Source: Polaribacter sp. KT25b
GTDB taxonomy: Bacteria > Bacteroidota > Bacteroidia > Flavobacteriales > Flavobacteriaceae
NCBI RefSeq assembly: GCF_900105145.1
Contig: NZ_LT629752.1
Span: 124,001 to 188,000, forward strand
Length of the DNA stretch: 64,000 nt
Direction of reading: 5' to 3'
Part shown: one piece after another, positions 46,979 to 55,839 of the stretch
Numbering within the stretch: the first letter of the stretch is position 1
Layout of the letters: the number at the start of each line of letters is the position of its first letter
Made by a program: the position numbers and the translations under genes
The notes under the pieces: model-generated
The model's database searches: none
What the model was told of the DNA's origin: nothing
Seen by the model: only the letters and a program-made list of their open reading frames with translations

Positions 46979-49417
46979 TTATTGATTCGCAATTCTAATT
47001 ACATCAGCAAAAATACCAGAAGCAGTAACATCTGCACCAGCACCAGCACCTTTTATAATTAAAGGATTTTCTGGATATCTGTCAGTAAAAAATAATACAA
47101 TATTATCACTTCCTTCTAAATTATAAAAAGGATGATCTGAAGGAATATGTTGTAAACCAACATTCGCTTTTCCGTCAACAAATTCTGCAACATATTTTAA
47201 ACGACAGTCTTTGTCATTTGCTTCTTTAAATATATTTTGAAAATGTGCTTCGTTTTTAGTTAACGATGCATAAAAATCGTCATTATTAGTTGTGTTTAAA
47301 CTGTCGTCAGGTAAAAAAGCATTTTTAGCAATTTCTTCTAATTCCATTTTATAACCACTTTCTCTGGCTAAAATTAAGATTTTTCTAGCAACATCAACAC
47401 CACTTAAATCAATTTTTGGATCCGGTTCTGTATATCCTTCTTTTTGAGCAGCAGCAACCACATCATGAAAAGTTGAATCTGCATTAAAGTTATTGAAAAC
47501 AAAATTTAAACTTCCAGATAATACTGCTTGAATTTTATTGACCCTATCGCCAGAGTTTACTAAATTCTTTAAAGTATCTATAATTGGTAAACCTGCACCA
47601 ACATTTGTTTCAAATAAGAAAGAAGCATTGTATTTTCTAGAAACTTGTTTTAAGGTTTTATAATTGTCGAAGCTAGAAGCACAAGCAATTTTATTACAAG
47701 TTACAACAGAAATGCTATCACGTAAATATTTTTCATAGATTTCAGAAACTTGCTGATTTGCAGTATTGTCTATAAAAACACTATTAATATGGTTGCTTTC
47801 TTTTACTTTTTTATGAAAACTGTCTAAAGTTGTAGGTTCTCCGTTTTCTAAAGCTTCTTTCCAATTATTTAGATCGATACCATTATCATCGAAAGCCATT
47901 TTTTTAGAATTCGCAATTCCGATAACCTTAATACTTAATTTTAAGTTTTCTTTTAAGAACTTTTTTTGTTGATGTATTTGAGCTAAAAAGCGTTCGCCAA
48001 CATTACCAACACCAGTTACAAACAAGTTTAGTTGTTTCGTTCTTTCTTCAAAGAATTGCTCATGTAATGTGTTTAAAGCCTTTTTTGCATCGTATTTATT
48101 AATAACTGCAGAGATGTTTTTTTCTGATGAACCTTGTGCAATTGCTCTAACATTTACATTATTTCTTCCTAAGGCGCTAAACATTTGTCCGCTTAAACCT
48201 TGGTAGTTTTTCATGCTCTCACCAACAACAGCTATAATTGCCAAATCTTTTTCTACAATGATTGGCTTTATTTTTTTCTTGTCTATTTCTATGCTAAAAG
48301 TTTCGTCTAAAAGTTCTTTTGCTTTTGCAGCATCATTTTCATAAACACCCACACAAATTGAATGTTCAGAAGAAGCTTGTGTTATAAAAACAACATTTAT
48401 TTTTGCTATAGAAAGTGTTTCGAACAAACGCTTAGAAAAACCAGGGATGCCAATCATTCCTCCGCCTTCTAAAGTAATTAAGCTGATGTCTTCAATATGC
48501 GAAATTCCTTTAACTTCATTGCTGTTTTTTGGATTATTACAAATTAATGTTCCAAAATTATCTGGCTCAAAAGTATTTTTAATTCTAATAGGAATTTCTT
48601 TTCTTAAAGCTGGTTGAATTGTTGGTGGATATAAAACTTTTGCGCCAAAATGAGACAATTCCATTGCTTCTTCATAAGAAATTTCTGAAATAGGATATGC
48701 TTGTTTCACAACTCTCGGATTTGCAGTAAACATCCCAGAAACATCTGTCCAAATTTGTAATTCATCAGCATTTAAAGCAGCAGCGTAAATTGCTGCGGTA
48801 AAATCAGATCCACCTCTTCCTAATGTTGTAGTTTCTCCATTTATATCAGAAGAAATAAAGCCACCTAAAACAACAACTTGATGTTTGTTTTTTTCAAAAA
48901 ATGAAGCTATATTTTTATCAGTAACCTTAAAATTCACTTGAGCATTTAAATAATCATTATTCGTAATTATTAAATCTCTGCTCTCTCCATGAATTGCGTC
49001 AAATAATTCTTTTGCAGCATTTGCAATAATATAAGAAGAAAGTCTTTCGCCAAAACTAGAAATCTTAGCCAATGTTTTGTCAGACAATTCTTGTAATAAA
49101 AAAACACCTGAATAAATGGATTCTAATCTATCAAACAGATAAGTAACCTCTTTTTTAACTTCTTTTATGTTTTTTGTAATTAGATCATCAATGGTATCAA
49201 AATGCAATTCTTTAATTGAGTCTAAGGTTTTTTTAGCTGAAACAATATCTTCTAAAGCTGCATCAGCACCTGCTAAAAGGTTATTTGTTGTTTTTCCAAA
49301 AGCAGAAACTACAACAGCTACTTTATTTTCTTTTGCTATTTTAGCAACAATGTCTAAAACTTTTTTGATGTTTTCTGAGTTAGCTACAGACGAGCCTCCA
49401 AATTTTAATACTTTCAT
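46979..49417 (-). CDS. thrA: Bifunctional aspartokinase / homoserine dehydrogenase
   Basis: An 812-residue fusion. Residues 1-300 are aspartokinase (KVLKFGGSSVAN; TTLGRGGSDFTA), about 310-460 are two ACT domains, and about 465-812 are homoserine dehydrogenase (LFVTGVGNVGERFL, then KIDLSGVDVARKILILARE). It catalyses steps 1 and 3 of threonine synthesis and is likely threonine-inhibited, as in E. coli ThrA. It heads thrABC and is preceded by a candidate threonine leader peptide. Confidence 0.95.
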   Translation of the reverse strand: MKVLKFGGSSVANSENIKKVLDIVAKIAKENKVAVVVSAFGKTTNNLLAGADAALEDIVSAKKTLDSIKELHFDTIDDLITKNIKEVKKEVTYLFDRLESIYSGVFLLQELSDKTLAKISSFGERLSSYIIANAAKELFDAIHGESRDLIITNNDYLNAQVNFKVTDKNIASFFEKNKHQVVVLGGFISSDINGETTTLGRGGSDFTAAIYAAALNADELQIWTDVSGMFTANPRVVKQAYPISEISYEEAMELSHFGAKVLYPPTIQPALRKEIPIRIKNTFEPDNFGTLICNNPKNSNEVKGISHIEDISLITLEGGGMIGIPGFSKRLFETLSIAKINVVFITQASSEHSICVGVYENDAAKAKELLDETFSIEIDKKKIKPIIVEKDLAIIAVVGESMKNYQGLSGQMFSALGRNNVNVRAIAQGSSEKNISAVINKYDAKKALNTLHEQFFEERTKQLNLFVTGVGNVGERFLAQIHQQKKFLKENLKLSIKVIGIANSKKMAFDDNGIDLNNWKEALENGEPTTLDSFHKKVKESNHINSVFIDNTANQQVSEIYEKYLRDSISVVTCNKIACASSFDNYKTLKQVSRKYNASFLFETNVGAGLPIIDTLKNLVNSGDRVNKIQAVLSGSLNFVFNNFNADSTFHDVVAAAQKEGYTEPDPKIDLSGVDVARKILILARESGYKMELEEIAKNAFLPDDSLNTTNNDDFYASLTKNEAHFQNIFKEANDKDCRLKYVAEFVDGKANVGLQHIPSDHPFYNLEGSDNIVLFFTDRYPENPLIIKGAGAGADVTASGIFADVIRIANQ

Positions 49418-51293: not shown

Positions 51294-51386
51294 AATATAT
51301 TGATGTTTAAATACTTGTGTTTTTTATAAGTATATTAGAAATCGTGAAAGATGTTGTGCAAAAGTAATATTTGAAAATACAATATA

Positions 51387-51394
51387 TACTTTTG
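51387..51394 (+). promoter_or_regulatory. leuA promoter -7 box
   Basis: TACTTTTG matches TAnnTTTG and lies 28 bp before the leuA ATG. It overlaps an upstream in-frame extension that begins at TTG 51371, so that extension is not used as the start. Confidence 0.5.
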
Positions 51395-51421
51395 GTCAAA
51401 TATAAAGATAATCTTTACAAA

Positions 51422-52600
51422 ATGATGCAAGATAATAAAGTTCAAATTTTTGACACTACTTTAAGGGATGGAGAGCAAGTGCCTGGTTGTAAACTTGATA
51501 CTAAACAAAAATTAGTAATCGCAGAAAGATTAGATTTACTAGGTGTAAATGTTATAGAGGCAGGTTTTCCAGTTTCAAGTCCTGGAGATTTTATTTCTGT
51601 GTCTGAAATTGCTAAAATTGTAAAAAACGCTACAGTTTGTGGTTTAACTAGAGCTGTAGAAAATGATATAAAAGTTGCTGCAGAAGCATTAAAATTTGCA
51701 AAATATCCAAGAATTCATACTGGTATTGGAACAAGTGATTCACATATAAAATTCAAATTTAATTCAACCAGAGAGCAAGTTATAGAACGCGCAGTAAAAG
51801 CAGTTTCATATTCAAAATCTTTTGTAGAAGACGTAGAGTTTTATGCAGAAGACGCAGGTAGAACAGATAACGAATTTTTAGCAAGAGTTTGTGAAGCCGT
51901 TATAAAAGCGGGTGCAACTGTTTTAAATATTCCTGATACAACAGGTTATTGTTTGCCAGAAGAATATGGAGCAAAAATGAAATATTTACGCGAAAACGTT
52001 AAAGGTATTGATAATGTAATTCTTTCTTGTCATTGTCATAACGATTTAGGAATGGCAACTGCAAACTCAATTGCTGGTGTAATAAATGGTGCTCGACAAA
52101 TAGAATGTACCATAAATGGGATTGGTGAAAGAGCAGGAAATACAGCTTTAGAAGAAGTTGTAATGGTACTAAAACAACATCCATATTTAAATTTAGAAAC
52201 AAGTATTAATACAAAACTGTTATACGATACTAGTATTATGGTTCGCGAAAGTATGGGAATGCCTGTGCAACCTAATAAAGCAATTGTTGGTGCAAATGCA
52301 TTTGCTCATAGTTCTGGAATTCATCAAGATGGAGTTATAAAAAACAGAGAAACATACGAAATTATGGATCCGGAAGATGTTGGTGTTACAGAAAGTGCAA
52401 TTGTTTTAACAGCAAGAAGTGGAAGAGCGGCGTTGGCTTATAGAGCAAAAAAAATAGGATATGAACTTACAAAAGTACAGTTAGACGTTGCGTATACTTC
52501 ATTTTTAAAGTTAGCTGATACACAAAAAGAAATCAAAAATGATGATATTCACACTATTATGAAAGTGGTGAGTAAGGTTTCTAAAATTACAATGGTATAA
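51422..52600 (+). CDS. leuA: 2-isopropylmalate synthase (short form)
   Basis: A 392-residue enzyme from the ATG at 51422 (a second ATG follows at once). The catalytic TIM barrel is complete: [27 protein letters not shown] and the GIHQDG motif. It stops shortly after the linker domain and lacks the C-terminal LeuA dimer domain that binds leucine in ~515-residue enzymes. Direct leucine feedback is therefore unlikely. Homocitrate or citramalate synthase are alternatives, but leuB next door favours LeuA. leuC and leuD are not in the window. Confidence 0.85.
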
Positions 52601-52695: not shown

Positions 52696-53817
52696 ATGAA
52701 ATTAACAATTGCTGTAATTCCTGGAGACGGTATTGGACCAGAAGTAACTGCACAAGCTAAAAAAGCTTTGGATGCAGTTGCAGAAGTTTATGACCATATT
52801 TTTTTATACAAAGAAGCACAAATGGGTGCTTGTGCAATGGAATCTACTGGAAATCCTTTGCCAGATGCAACTATCGAAATTTGTAAAAAAGCAGATGCTA
52901 TCTTATATGGAGCAATTGGAACTTTAAAATACGATAACGATCCAGAAGCTAAAATAAGACCAGAACAAGGGTTATTTCGATTAAGAAAAGAGCTAGGTTT
53001 ATATTGTAACGTAAGACCTGTAAAAGCTTACGAAAAATTAGTTAAAAATTCTCCACTAAAAAAAGAAGTAATACAAGGTGCAGATATTGTAATTTATAGA
53101 GAATTAAGTGGCGGAATTTATTTTGACACAAAAGAATTAAGTGAAGATGGATTATCTGCTTTTGACATTTGTTCTTATACTGTTGATCAGATTTCAAAAG
53201 TAGCACACTTAGCTTTTAAAGCAGCTCAAAATAGAAAGAAAAAAGTTACTTTAATTGATAAAGCTAATGTTTTGGAAACTTCTCGTTTATGGAGAAAGAC
53301 AGTAACAGAAATCGCAAAAGAATATACAAATGTAGAGTTAGATTTTATGTTTGTAGATAATGCAGCATTACAAATTGTTTTAAATCCAAAACAATTTGAT
53401 GTTATATTAACAGAAAACCTTTTTGGTGATATTATTTCTGATGAAGCCAGTGTAATTAGTGGTTCTATTGGTTTGTTGGCTTCGTCTTCAATTGGAGAAA
53501 AAACTGCAATGTTCGAGCCTATTCATGGTTCTTATCCGCAAGCAAAAGGAAAAGATATCGCAAATCCGTTAGCTTCAATTTTATCAGCAGCTATGCTTTT
53601 AGAACATTTTGGTTTGCAAGAAGAATCAGATGCAATAAAAAGAGCTTTAGAAAAATCGTTAACTTTAGGTATTACAACAGAAGATATAAAAGGTAAAAAT
53701 CAATACTCTGCATCAACATCAAAAGTAGGAGGTTTTATTGCAGACTATATTTTAAATCAAGAAGATAGTAATATGAATTTTAAAAATATTCATATGGGTC
53801 AAAGTACAATTATTTAA
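52696..53817 (+). CDS. leuB: 3-isopropylmalate dehydrogenase
   Basis: A 373-residue NAD-dependent dehydrogenase: VIPGDGIGPEV at the start, YRELSGGIYFD, LTENLFGDIISDEASVISGSIGLLASSS and EPIHGSYPQAKGKDIANPLA. It oxidises isopropylmalate in leucine synthesis. The tail NFKNIHMGQSTII extends past the usual end. It starts 95 bp after leuA. A leader peptide and terminator separate it from ilvD. Confidence 0.93.
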   Translation: MKLTIAVIPGDGIGPEVTAQAKKALDAVAEVYDHIFLYKEAQMGACAMESTGNPLPDATIEICKKADAILYGAIGTLKYDNDPEAKIRPEQGLFRLRKELGLYCNVRPVKAYEKLVKNSPLKKEVIQGADIVIYRELSGGIYFDTKELSEDGLSAFDICSYTVDQISKVAHLAFKAAQNRKKKVTLIDKANVLETSRLWRKTVTEIAKEYTNVELDFMFVDNAALQIVLNPKQFDVILTENLFGDIISDEASVISGSIGLLASSSIGEKTAMFEPIHGSYPQAKGKDIANPLASILSAAMLLEHFGLQEESDAIKRALEKSLTLGITTEDIKGKNQYSASTSKVGGFIADYILNQEDSNMNFKNIHMGQSTII

Positions 53818-53833
53818 AAAGATAAAATTTTTA

Positions 53834-53865
53834 TTTGGATATTAAACTTTAATTTCAAATATTTG
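53834..53865 (+). promoter_or_regulatory. Putative promoter of the ilv leader
   Basis: TTTG (53834-53837), a 20-bp spacer and AATATTTG (53858-53865, one mismatch to TAnnTTTG). Transcription would begin a few bases before the leader ATG at 53875, making it nearly leaderless. Confidence 0.5.
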
Positions 53866-53874
53866 AAGCATAGA

Positions 53875-53934
53875 ATGAAAAAACAAATTTTAAATATTAT
53901 TTCAATTATTGTCATCGTAATTTCTACGACATGA
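53875..53934 (+). CDS. ilvL: Candidate branched-chain amino acid leader peptide
   Basis: A 19-codon frame, MKKQILNIISIIVIVISTT, between leuB and ilvD. It has seven Ile, two Val and one Leu, and ends in two Thr (Thr is the precursor of Ile). It is followed 31 bp later by an 8-bp hairpin with nine T. The bases GGAAG just after its stop (53938-53942) can pair with CTTCC of that hairpin, a possible antiterminator. This is the classic layout of an ilv attenuator. The symbol is by analogy with enterobacterial ilv leaders; the ribosome-stalling mechanism is inferred. Confidence 0.8.
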   Translation: MKKQILNIISIIVIVISTT

Positions 53935-53965
53935 TAAGGAAGTGGTATTTATTTTTAAAATTATA

Positions 53966-53995
53966 GCCTTCCAATTATTTGGGAGGTTTTTTTTT
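53966..53995 (+). terminator. ilv attenuator (terminator hairpin)
   Basis: CCTTCCAA and TTGGGAGG pair over eight bases (one G-T) around TTAT, followed by nine T. It lies between the leader frame and ilvD, 168 bp before ilvD. The rest of the gap to 54162 is AT-rich with no further gene seen. Confidence 0.85.
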
Positions 53996-54162
53996 GAATT
54001 TATTTTAATGATTGAATGTCATATTTAAATAGGGTTAATACGCTTTTTATCAGCTTGTTATATGTTTTTTTTAACACCTGAATTTAAAGAGTCTTATTGA
54101 GTGTTATTCAATGAAAATAGAGAAATAGTCTAATTTAGTCATCAAATTGAAGAATATATTAA

Positions 54163-55839
54163 ATGGAATTAAATAAACATAGCAAAAGATTAACGCAAGA
54201 TGAATCTCAGCCTGCATCACAAGCAATGTTGTATGCTGTTGGATTAACAGATGAAGACATGAGTAGGGCTCAAGTTGGAATTGCAAGCACAGGTTATGAT
54301 GGAAATCCTTGTAATATGCATTTAAATAATTTGGCTGCAGAAGTCAAAGTAGAAAGCAAAATTGCAGGTTTAGTTGGTTTAGGATTTAATACAATTGGAG
54401 TTTCTGATGGAATTTCTATGGGGACTTCTGGTATGAATTATTCTTTAGCTTCAAGAGATATTATTGCAGATTCTATAGAAACTGTTATGAATGCTCAAAG
54501 TTATGATGCATTGGTTTCTGTGGTTGGTTGTGATAAAAATATGCCAGGAGCAGTAATCGCAATGTTACGTTTAAATCGTCCATCAATTATGATGTATGGT
54601 GGTACAATTGCATCAGGAAATTACAAAGGAAAAAAATTAAATATCGTTTCCGCCTTTGAAGCTTTAGGTCAAAAAATGGCTGGAGAAATTGAAGATGATG
54701 AATATAGAGAAATTATAAAAAGGGCAATTCCAGGAGCAGGTGCTTGTGGAGGAATGTATACAGCAAATACAATGGCTTCTGCAATAGAATGTATGGGGTT
54801 TGGGTTGCCTTATAATTCATCAATACCAGCAGAAAATCCGAATAAATTATCAGAAGCGGAAAGAACTGCTATCGCAATTAAAAATTTATTAGAATTAGAT
54901 TTAAAACCTTTAGATATTATTTCTAAAAAATCTTTAGAAAATGCAATCGCATTGGTAAATGCTTTAGGAGGATCAACAAATGCAGTTTTACACTTTTTAG
55001 CAATTGCGCATGCAGCAGATATTGAGTTTACTTTAGAAGATTTTCAAAGAGTTTCAGACAGAACGCCATTAATTGCAGATTTAAAACCATCAGGAAAATA
55101 CTTAATGGAAGATGTTCATGGGGTTGGAGGTACGCCTGCAATTATGAAATATTTATTAGAAAATGGATATTTACATGGAGATTGTATGACTGTTACAGGT
55201 AAAACATTAGCAGAAAATTTAGCAGATGTAAAAGCAATGGAATTTGAAGATCAAGATGTAATTTATCCAAAAGATAAAGCATTAAAATCATCAGGAAACC
55301 TACAAATTTTATTTGGAAACTTAGCAGAAGAAGGAGCTGTAGCAAAAATTTCTGGTAATGAAGGTTTATTGTTTGAAGGAAAAGCTGTGGTTTATAATGG
55401 AGAACAAGCGGCAAATACAGGAATTATAAATGGAGAAGTAGAAAGAGGAGATGTAGTCGTCATTCGCTATGTTGGACCTAAAGGAGGACCAGGAATGCCA
55501 GAAATGTTAAAACCAACTTCTTTAATAATGGGAGCAGGTTTAGGTAAATCTGTAGCTTTAATTACTGATGGTCGTTTTTCTGGAGGAACTCATGGTTTTG
55601 TGGTTGGACATATTACACCAGAAGCTCAATCTGGAGGAACAATTGGGTTATTAAAAACTGGAGATAAAATTAGAATTAGTGCAGAAGATAACTCTATAAA
55701 TGTTTTAATTTCTGATGAAGAATTAGCAGAAAGAAAATCTAAATGGGTTGCACCAGCATTAAAGCACAAAAAAGGGATTTTGTATAAATATGCAAAAACA
55801 GTAGCATCAGCATCTAAAGGATGTGTTACAGATTTATAA
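54163..55839 (+). CDS. ilvD: Dihydroxyacid dehydratase
   Basis: A 558-residue Fe-S dehydratase of valine and isoleucine synthesis. Cluster cysteines are in [19 protein letters not shown] and [12 protein letters not shown], and the [17 protein letters not shown] signature is present. It is the first enzyme gene behind the ilv attenuator; ilvB starts 49 bp later. Confidence 0.95.

What the first reader, a model, noticed from the sequence alone, without database searches (positions are those of the whole stretch)
53834..53995. Complete branched-chain attenuator between leuB and ilvD
Leader frame MKKQILNIISIIVIVISTT (10 of 19 residues Ile/Val/Leu, then Thr-Thr), a GGAAG able to pair with the CTTCC arm of the terminator, and a strong 8-bp hairpin with nine T occur in order within 120 bp, before the ilvDBNCA genes. 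This is a textbook attenuator layout found de novo in a Bacteroidota genome. It lies inside a leu-ilv cluster, so it would uncouple ilv expression from leuAB.
Basis: partly seen in the sequence, partly recalled or inferred. Interest (0 to 1): 0.82.

Follow-up and report, generated by a model that had tools for sequence, protein, structure and literature searches.

The report
Ile/Val attenuator before ilvD, flavobacterium
In front of the isoleucine/valine genes of this marine flavobacterium sits a tiny isoleucine- and valine-rich reading frame with switchable RNA hairpins that very probably lets those genes be read only when these amino acids run short: a classic switch, kept in many relatives, and probably started in an unusual way.

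Summary
Between leuB and ilvDBNCA lie a 19-codon Ile/Val leader (53875-53934), a 1:2 hairpin over its codons, a GGAAG antiterminator arm and a terminator with nine T. A strict scan of 1.31 Mb, both strands, finds 104 such places; 103 lie within 1.5 kb upstream of ilvD, and the window has one, the finding. Leader and terminator occur at 26 of 33 same-genus leuB-ilvD junctions; 7 lack them or are degenerate. Antiterminator arms co-vary with differing terminators (0 of 20,000 permutations). Ile/Val are kept in one frame; rare GTC makes up 46% of leader Val codons, 1-2% in this genome's genes. Same-genus loci without leuB upstream mostly carry two attenuators in series (16 of 22). The kind is known (E. 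coli, Corynebacterium; clues in Flavobacterium psychrophilum). No function was measured.

The parts
53835..53837 (+). possible -33 TTG element of promoter P1, 20 nt before the -7 box
   Evidence: sequence, (TTG spacing 20 in the window; many relatives show no TTG at 17-23 nt); the TTG element of Bacteroidota promoters is recalled
53858..53865 (+). -7 box AATATTTG of promoter P1, 9 nt before the leader ATG; predicted transcript start about 53870, 5'UTR about 5 nt
   Evidence: nAnnTTTG 4-12 nt before the leader start in 24 of 32 same-genus leaders, shuffled mean 0.7, max 4; consensus TAnnTTTG at -12 to -5 in F. psychrophilum (PMC9723704)
53875..53934 (+). leader frame MKKQILNIISIIVIVISTT with stop TGA; control codons ATT ATT GTC ATC GTA ATT at 53905-53922
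53891..53903 (+). arm 1, inside the leader frame; pairs with arm 2 (anti-antiterminator hairpin 1:2)
   Evidence: 53891-53951 folds to -16.4 kcal/mol, z -4.6; 10 of these pairs recovered by RNAalifold on 30 relatives
53938..53951 (+). arm 2, with GGAAG 53938-53942, pairing either with arm 1 or with CTTCC of arm 3
53965..53974 (+). arm 3, 5' side of the terminator, with CTTCC 53968-53972
53979..53995 (+). arm 4 (53979-53988) and T9 run (53987-53995): intrinsic terminator 3:4
   Evidence: 53962-53993 folds to -13.2 kcal/mol, z -4.9; conserved
54012..54023 (+). conserved motif TTGAATGTCATA after the terminator, kept also in relatives without an attenuator; function unknown, perhaps an operator
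54131..54138 (+). promoter-like box P2 TAATTTAG, 24 nt before the ilvD ATG and downstream of the terminator
   Evidence: TAnTTTnG 22-24 nt before the ATG in 32 of 33 same-genus leuB-ilvD junctions, shuffled mean 0.58, max 4
54163..55839 (+). ilvD, first controlled gene; ilvB, ilvN, ilvC, ilvA follow to 61087

Best explanation
A ribosome-mediated transcription attenuator for ilvDBNCA that senses charged tRNA-Ile and tRNA-Val. RNA polymerase starts at P1 a few bases before the leader ATG; a ribosome starts on this near-leaderless message. With enough Ile and Val it reaches the stop codon, its footprint covers GGAAG, and the terminator 3:4 forms. When Ile- or Val-tRNA is short it stalls in ATT ATT GTC ATC GTA ATT, keeps arm 1 covered and leaves GGAAG free; GGAAG pairs with CTTCC before arm 4 is made, and polymerase reads into ilvD. 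With no ribosome, hairpin 1:2 takes GGAAG and transcription ends. Shown here by sequence and comparison: the anatomy, its conservation and the pairings. Inferred: promoter use, leader translation, the response to starvation. A second promoter-like site P2 probably gives some ilvD transcript that skips the switch.
For: The finding is the window's only strict leader+terminator hit, and 103 of 104 such places in 1,307,576 bases lie within 1.5 kb upstream of ilvD (loci chosen for ilvD). Leader and terminator at 26 of 33 same-genus leuB-ilvD junctions. RNAalifold on 30 relatives gives 1:2 and 3:4 unprompted, -8.5 against about 0 for shuffled columns. 2:3 complementarity 14.8 against 11.4 (sd 0.3) for shuffled arm 2; co-variation over 20 units, 0 of 20,000 permutations. 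Ile/Val fraction 0.56 in frame against 0.09 and 0.03 in the other frames; changes at Ile/Val codons 28 synonymous, 13 to I/V, 28 other against 16, 8, 45 expected. GTC is 46% of leader Val codons against 1-2% in genes of this genome, with one tRNA-Val gene (UAC) among 36 tRNAs found. Folding downstream of a ribosome before arm 4: P(2:3) 0.10 with no ribosome, 0.96-1.0 at codons 5-18, 0.03 at codon 19, 0 at the stop. His, Trp and Phe leaders before their genes in the same genome.
Against: No expression data. On the full transcript at equilibrium the terminator wins at every ribosome position, so the switch must be kinetic. The window's 2:3 helix is weak: -7.5 kcal/mol, z -1.4, 18 of 200 shuffles as good; in 10 of 62 attenuators it has at most 4 contiguous pairs. 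7 of 33 relatives with the same gene order lack the unit or are degenerate. The nearest named relative, L002 (95% in ilvD), has a 15-codon leader without the control stretch. GTC enrichment may partly reflect the inner hairpin, and in seven relatives' loci GTC is 0.5-22% of Val codons, so part of the contrast may be species mix. P2 could carry most ilvD transcription.
Confidence: 0.9

Rival explanations
1. An ordinary leuB terminator next to a chance open frame; ilvD is driven by P2 alone.
For: P2 box in 32 of 33 junctions; 5 of 7 junctions without an intact attenuator have the perfect box TATTTTTG and 0 of 26 with one do; terminators at gene ends are common.
Against: Frame, Ile/Val codons, 1:2 hairpin and co-varying 2:3 arms are conserved; the unit is also found before ilvD or ilvE where no leuB lies upstream in the fetched flank.
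Confidence: 0.05
2. The frame encodes a functional small hydrophobic membrane peptide; the hairpins are incidental.
For: The peptide is hydrophobic and about one membrane span long; its frame is conserved.
Against: Leu share of I+L+V is 0.089 in leaders against 0.399 in hydrophobic 16-mers of window frames; the rare codon GTC is enriched; leaders with quite different ends keep the Ile/Val run and an RNA arm at the stop.
Confidence: 0.03
3. The attenuator works but is a minor contributor: P2 with the conserved block before it (perhaps a repressor or activator site) is the main control of ilvD.
For: Conserved block with box and palindrome-like motifs, without RNA structure (RNAalifold 0.0), kept also where the attenuator is lost.
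Against: Attenuator sequence and pairing stay conserved at 26 of 33 junctions; where the attenuator is intact P2 is TAATTTAG in 24 of 26, one base off the sigma-A consensus, and no TTG was seen by eye at the usual distance (window sequence).
Confidence: 0.25

Closest known systems
E. coli ilvGMEDA and ilvBN leader-peptide attenuators (recalled, no call)
   Same: Branched-chain leader peptide, alternative hairpins, terminator before ilv genes
   Different: Other leader sequence; start at a Shine-Dalgarno site on a longer 5'UTR (recalled); here the predicted 5'UTR is about 5 nt
Corynebacterium glutamicum ilvBNC attenuator with leader IlvL (PMC11857589, passages seen)
   Same: Leader whose ATG lies one nucleotide from the transcript start; terminator, antiterminator and anti-antiterminator; further promoters
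   Different: 15-residue leader of other sequence with Val, Leu and Ile codons; other phylum; tested by mutation
Leader-peptide attenuation clues before amino-acid operons in Flavobacterium psychrophilum (PMC9723704: passages, section 15 part 1, section 19)
   Same: Same family Flavobacteriaceae and same proposed mechanism; conserved 5' elements before pheA and hisG named
   Different: ilvD does not occur in its main text; arms, codons and promoters of the leaders were not described in what I read; Table S7 not readable here
Salmonella mgtCBR tandem attenuators (PMC3641672, title and abstract start)
   Same: Two short ORFs in the leader before the controlled genes
   Different: A Mg2+ transporter and virulence operon, not an amino-acid one; comparable only to the tandem relatives, not to the single unit in the window

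Membership tests
ribosome-mediated (leader-peptide) transcription attenuator | short frame rich in codons for the product amino acids | tested here: met
   9 of 19 residues Ile/Val; in 60 distinct leaders 0.56 in frame against 0.09 and 0.03 in the other frames
ribosome-mediated (leader-peptide) transcription attenuator | intrinsic terminator between leader and first gene | tested here: met
   53965-53995; 53962-53993 folds to -13.2 kcal/mol, z -4.9
ribosome-mediated (leader-peptide) transcription attenuator | antiterminator 2:3 exclusive with terminator 3:4 | tested here: met
   GGAAG/CTTCC in the window; co-variation 0 of 20,000 permutations over 20 units; at most 4 contiguous pairs in 10 of 62
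ribosome-mediated (leader-peptide) transcription attenuator | anti-antiterminator 1:2 reaching into the leader codons | tested here: met
   53891-53951, 13 outer pairs; RNAalifold on 30 relatives
ribosome-mediated (leader-peptide) transcription attenuator | stop codon so placed that a ribosome there masks arm 2 | tested here: met
   stop 53932-53934, arm 2 from 53938; P(2:3) is 0 at the stop in a model with a 12-nt footprint
ribosome-mediated (leader-peptide) transcription attenuator | transcription starts upstream of the leader | tested here: inconclusive
   promoter box conserved, no transcript data
ribosome-mediated (leader-peptide) transcription attenuator | leader is translated and read-through rises on Ile/Val starvation | not testable with these tools
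   needs RNA and reporter data
T-box or a leader family of Rfam | match to a curated covariance model | tested here: not met
   the window's only match at the gathering threshold is a tRNA; over 53600-54200 the leader families score far below threshold: PyrG_leader 21.3 of 65, Phe_leader 20.9 of 55 bits
leaderless mRNA | transcript begins at or within a few nt of the start codon | tested here: inconclusive
   predicted 5'UTR about 5 nt in the window and 0 nt in 5 of 32 same-genus leaders (box 4 nt before the start); no 5'-end data

The most novel reading that the evidence does not exclude
In Bacteroidota, which do not rely on Shine-Dalgarno starts, classical attenuation is a general control of amino-acid operons (ilv, his, trp, phe and a variant at thr), run from near-leaderless leader messages and tuned with the poorly decoded Val codon GTC; in many relatives two ilv attenuators stand in series, so that both must be passed.
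Probability: 0.5. Interest if true: 0.62.

Novelty: new member of a known kind. Interest (0 to 1): 0.5.

Why it matters
It gives a defined, testable case of ribosome-coupled transcription control in a phylum whose ribosomes hide their anti-Shine-Dalgarno sequence (recalled) and for which the papers seen here offer only clues. If real, the leader ribosome must load on a message that starts almost at the AUG and keep pace with RNA polymerase. The tandem versions are a natural test of attenuators in series, and the GTC bias suggests that decoding speed itself is selected.

Tried and rejected
Rfam at the gathering threshold over the window and at E up to 10 over 53600-54200 gave no attenuator family. 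A structured RNA in the conserved block between terminator and ilvD: RNAalifold gives none, so I read it as DNA signals. Membrane-peptide reading: the Leu share argues against it. Equilibrium folding of the full transcript cannot show switching, as the terminator always wins. The first P1 script picked wrong sites in several rows because ties went to an upstream match; the count used is. The thr-leader distance script picked an overlapping start in 5 rows, spanned wrongly in 1 and found nothing in 1 of 30; I read these distances from the outputs instead.

Rows dropped or not used. The 62 attenuators were listed by hand; they leave out L084 (same leader as L083), L006, L065, L072 and the units found only (the ilvE-type loci among them). 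Alignment A1 holds 30 of the 32 same-genus first attenuators (without L113 and L135). Of 55 same-genus genomes with an ilvD match G031, a fragment at a contig end, was not fetched; 55 loci from 54 genomes were examined (G023 gives two). The strict scan misses L094, L099, L104, L109 and L113, which have leader and terminator. Its 105 hits count the window's own place twice (L001 and the window), so 104 places; L003 and L108 have identical upstream regions. For thrA, loci of 30 of 57 genomes were fetched.

Full report
OBSERVATION. The sequence is as described. Leader ATG at 53875, TGA at 53932-53934; GGAAG at 53938-53942; terminator stem 53965-53988 with T9 to 53995; ilvD ATG at 54163. NCBIfam names leuA, leuB, ilvD, ilvB, ilvN, ilvC and ilvA in that order. 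The window is 124001-188000 of the single 3.95-Mb contig of its genome. The closest ilvD among the listed GTDB records is from an uncultured Polaribacter (95%).

CHANCE. The terminator alone is weak evidence (1 site, 0.4 expected). The combination is not. A strict scan looked for an ATG or GTG frame of 12-32 codons with at least 6 Ile/Val in 10 residues, ending -5 to 60 nt before a T-tailed hairpin. It covered both strands of 1,307,576 bases (the window and 135 loci) and gave 105 hits, or 104 places, since the window's own place is also locus L001. One place (L058, 5.8 kb past the ilvD start) is elsewhere; the other 103 lie within 1.5 kb upstream of an ilvD start. In L011 the gene between is ilvE by NCBIfam; I did not run the others, which look alike. 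The loci were chosen because they hold ilvD, so the count speaks for specificity within them, not for whole genomes, and many are related.

CONSERVATION. At 33 same-genus junctions with leuB upstream, 26 have leader and terminator. Of the other 7, L093, L098 and L110 show neither; L096, L108 and L111 keep a terminator-like remnant (L111 by eye); L115 keeps the terminator and an Ile-rich frame without an ATG. Eight more loci have ilvD with no leuB in the fetched flank; 7 have an attenuator, L113 and L135 with poor leaders, and L119 has none. Fourteen further loci (L120-L133) have another arrangement, 13 with attenuators, not L132. In all 46 of 55 loci. Of the 22 loci without leuB, 16 have two units in series. 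Against the reading, the nearest named relative L002 has a 15-codon leader, MNKQVLNIISTVKTR, without the control stretch but with arm 2 and terminator, and L003 has lost the unit. By record title the hits include Flavobacteriaceae, Saprospiraceae, Chitinophaga and other Chitinophagaceae, Cyclobacteriaceae, Fulvivirga and other Cytophagales; L022 and L043 carry titles of other groups, which I did not check.

STRUCTURE. 53891-53951 folds to one hairpin, -16.4 kcal/mol (z -4.6), pairing leader codons with the bases after the stop; 2:3 is -7.5 (z -1.4), 3:4 -13.2 (z -4.9). RNAalifold on 30 relatives gives 1:2 and 3:4, 18 pairs, 4 of them with a double change; shuffled columns give about 0. Most columns hardly vary within the genus, so the main co-variation evidence is between units with different terminators: CTTCC, CTGTATC, CCATTCC, TCTCAA, CCGTTC and others face a matching arm 2. 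Over 20 such units the own-pair score is 16.65 against a permuted mean of 12.99, highest 15.8, 0 of 20,000 (some of the 20 are close relatives). Over 62 units it is 14.76 against 11.36 (sd 0.30, highest 12.26 of 200) for shuffled arm 2. Against this, 10 of 62 have at most 4 contiguous pairs, five of them Flavobacterium loci (L048, L054, L058, L061, L075), and in L082 and L037 the best helix is an A/U/G-U one that is not the expected arm.

CODONS. In 60 distinct leaders the Ile/Val fraction is 0.562 in frame, 0.087 and 0.026 in the other frames, and 0.172 when shuffled (highest 0.208 of 1000). At Ile/Val codons of 30 relatives the changes are 28 synonymous, 13 to I/V and 28 other; 16.3, 7.7 and 45.0 would be expected at random (rows are related, so this is a description). 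Leu is 8.9% of I+L+V in the leaders against 39.9% in hydrophobic stretches of window frames. GTC is 46% of leader Val codons, against 1% in long window frames, 1.9% in other loci of this genome, 5.4% in same-genus ilvD loci and 0.5-22% in seven other loci. It is high in all terminator classes: 60 of 135, 19 of 40, 34 of 80. The only tRNA-Val among 36 tRNA genes found has anticodon UAC (the search scored 150 of 355 candidates, so one may be missed). GTC is thus probably the slowest Val codon here. Confounders are the species mix of the leaders and the inner hairpin, in which GTC can pair with GAC.

MECHANISM. Folding only the RNA downstream of a ribosome (12 nt ahead of the A-site codon) before arm 4 is made, P(2:3) is 0.10 with no ribosome, 0.96-1.0 with the A site at codons 5-18, 0.03 at codon 19 and 0 at the stop. 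With half of arm 4 made the two compete; with all of it the terminator always wins. The switch must therefore be kinetic, as is assumed for the classic cases (recalled).

PROMOTERS. nAnnTTTG lies 4-12 nt before the start in 24 of 32 same-genus leaders; shuffled sequences give 0.7. In F. psychrophilum this sigma-A box spans -12 to -5 (PMC9723704), so the transcript would start 5 nt before the ATG in the window and exactly at it in five relatives. Six Flavobacterium leaders have TACTTTTG 18-22 nt upstream, an ordinary short 5'UTR; 6 of 24 leaders outside the genus show no such box. A second box, TAnTTTnG, sits 22-24 nt before the ilvD ATG in 32 of 33 junctions (0.58 expected), downstream of the terminator. 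Five of the seven junctions without an intact attenuator have TATTTTTG there; none of the 26 with one do. The seven are probably few lineages, so this is suggestive only.

PRIOR KNOWLEDGE. Leader-peptide attenuation is textbook. C. glutamicum ilvBNC is the nearest working parallel: start site one nucleotide from the leader ATG, three hairpins, further promoters (PMC11857589, passages). PMC9723704 reports strong clues for leader-peptide attenuation before amino-acid operons in F. psychrophilum and names pheA and hisG elements as conserved in the family (section 19). The B. thetaiotaomicron map mentions sORFs reminiscent of attenuation leaders (PMC7366714, passages). A 2010 attenuation survey by Lopatovskaya and others is cited in PMC4833913 (passages); I could not read it and it may cover Bacteroidetes. 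Passages of PMC2864571 and PMC6429828 held nothing on this. In the listings (59 and 60 show 20 of 26 and 15 of 31 papers) no title or abstract start describes an ilvD attenuator in this phylum; the library lacks most subscription journals. Hence: new member of a known kind.

Noticed in passing
window 49627-49505, minus strand (upstream of thrA 46979-49417): Promoter box TATTTTTG, then 4 nt later a GTG frame of 34 residues with a Thr-rich end (..MNTIIRTTPTTTTL), its stop codon inside a hairpin AACCCTTTAGGGGTT without a T run. In the 30 loci fetched (of 57 same-genus genomes) the ACCCTTTA(G/A)GGGTT hairpin and the Thr-rich end are in 30 of 30 and a GTG or ATG lies 4 nt after the box in 29 (5 nt in L163), the box being one base off in a few. 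By the -12 to -5 rule the start codon is the first transcribed base: a leaderless Thr/Ile leader without an obvious terminator, so perhaps a variant mechanism.
   Followed up: partly
same genome outside the window: L170 (hisG), L171 (trpE-like), L173 (prephenate dehydratase): Leader frames MTFIQFHHHHFYNCNQAI, MKNNTKNTWWWNSLIK and MLNNNFTRFYFYFYFYNKRRDFVSCY, each followed by a terminator-like hairpin before the gene (by eye; the T run after the trp hairpin is short and broken).
   Followed up: partly
L107, L116, L118, L120-L131, L133 (same genus); L009, L011, L022, L025, L028, L038: Two ilv attenuators in series. Commonly the first leader has a CTTCC terminator and the second, often ending ..SSPPS, a CTGTATC terminator (exceptions L022, L025, L028, L128, L133, and L131 with CTGTGTC).
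   Followed up: partly
window 54012-54138: A block between terminator and ilvD with TTGAAyATCATA, imperfect palindromes (for example TTGAGTGTTATTCAA at 54097-54111) and a promoter-like box is conserved in the genus and kept where the attenuator is lost; possible operator.
   Followed up: partly
window 51371-52600: LeuA is short: the 2-isopropylmalate synthase models of 494-523 positions match only to about position 383, so the C-terminal part that carries Leu feedback in other LeuA proteins (recalled) is missing.
   Followed up: no
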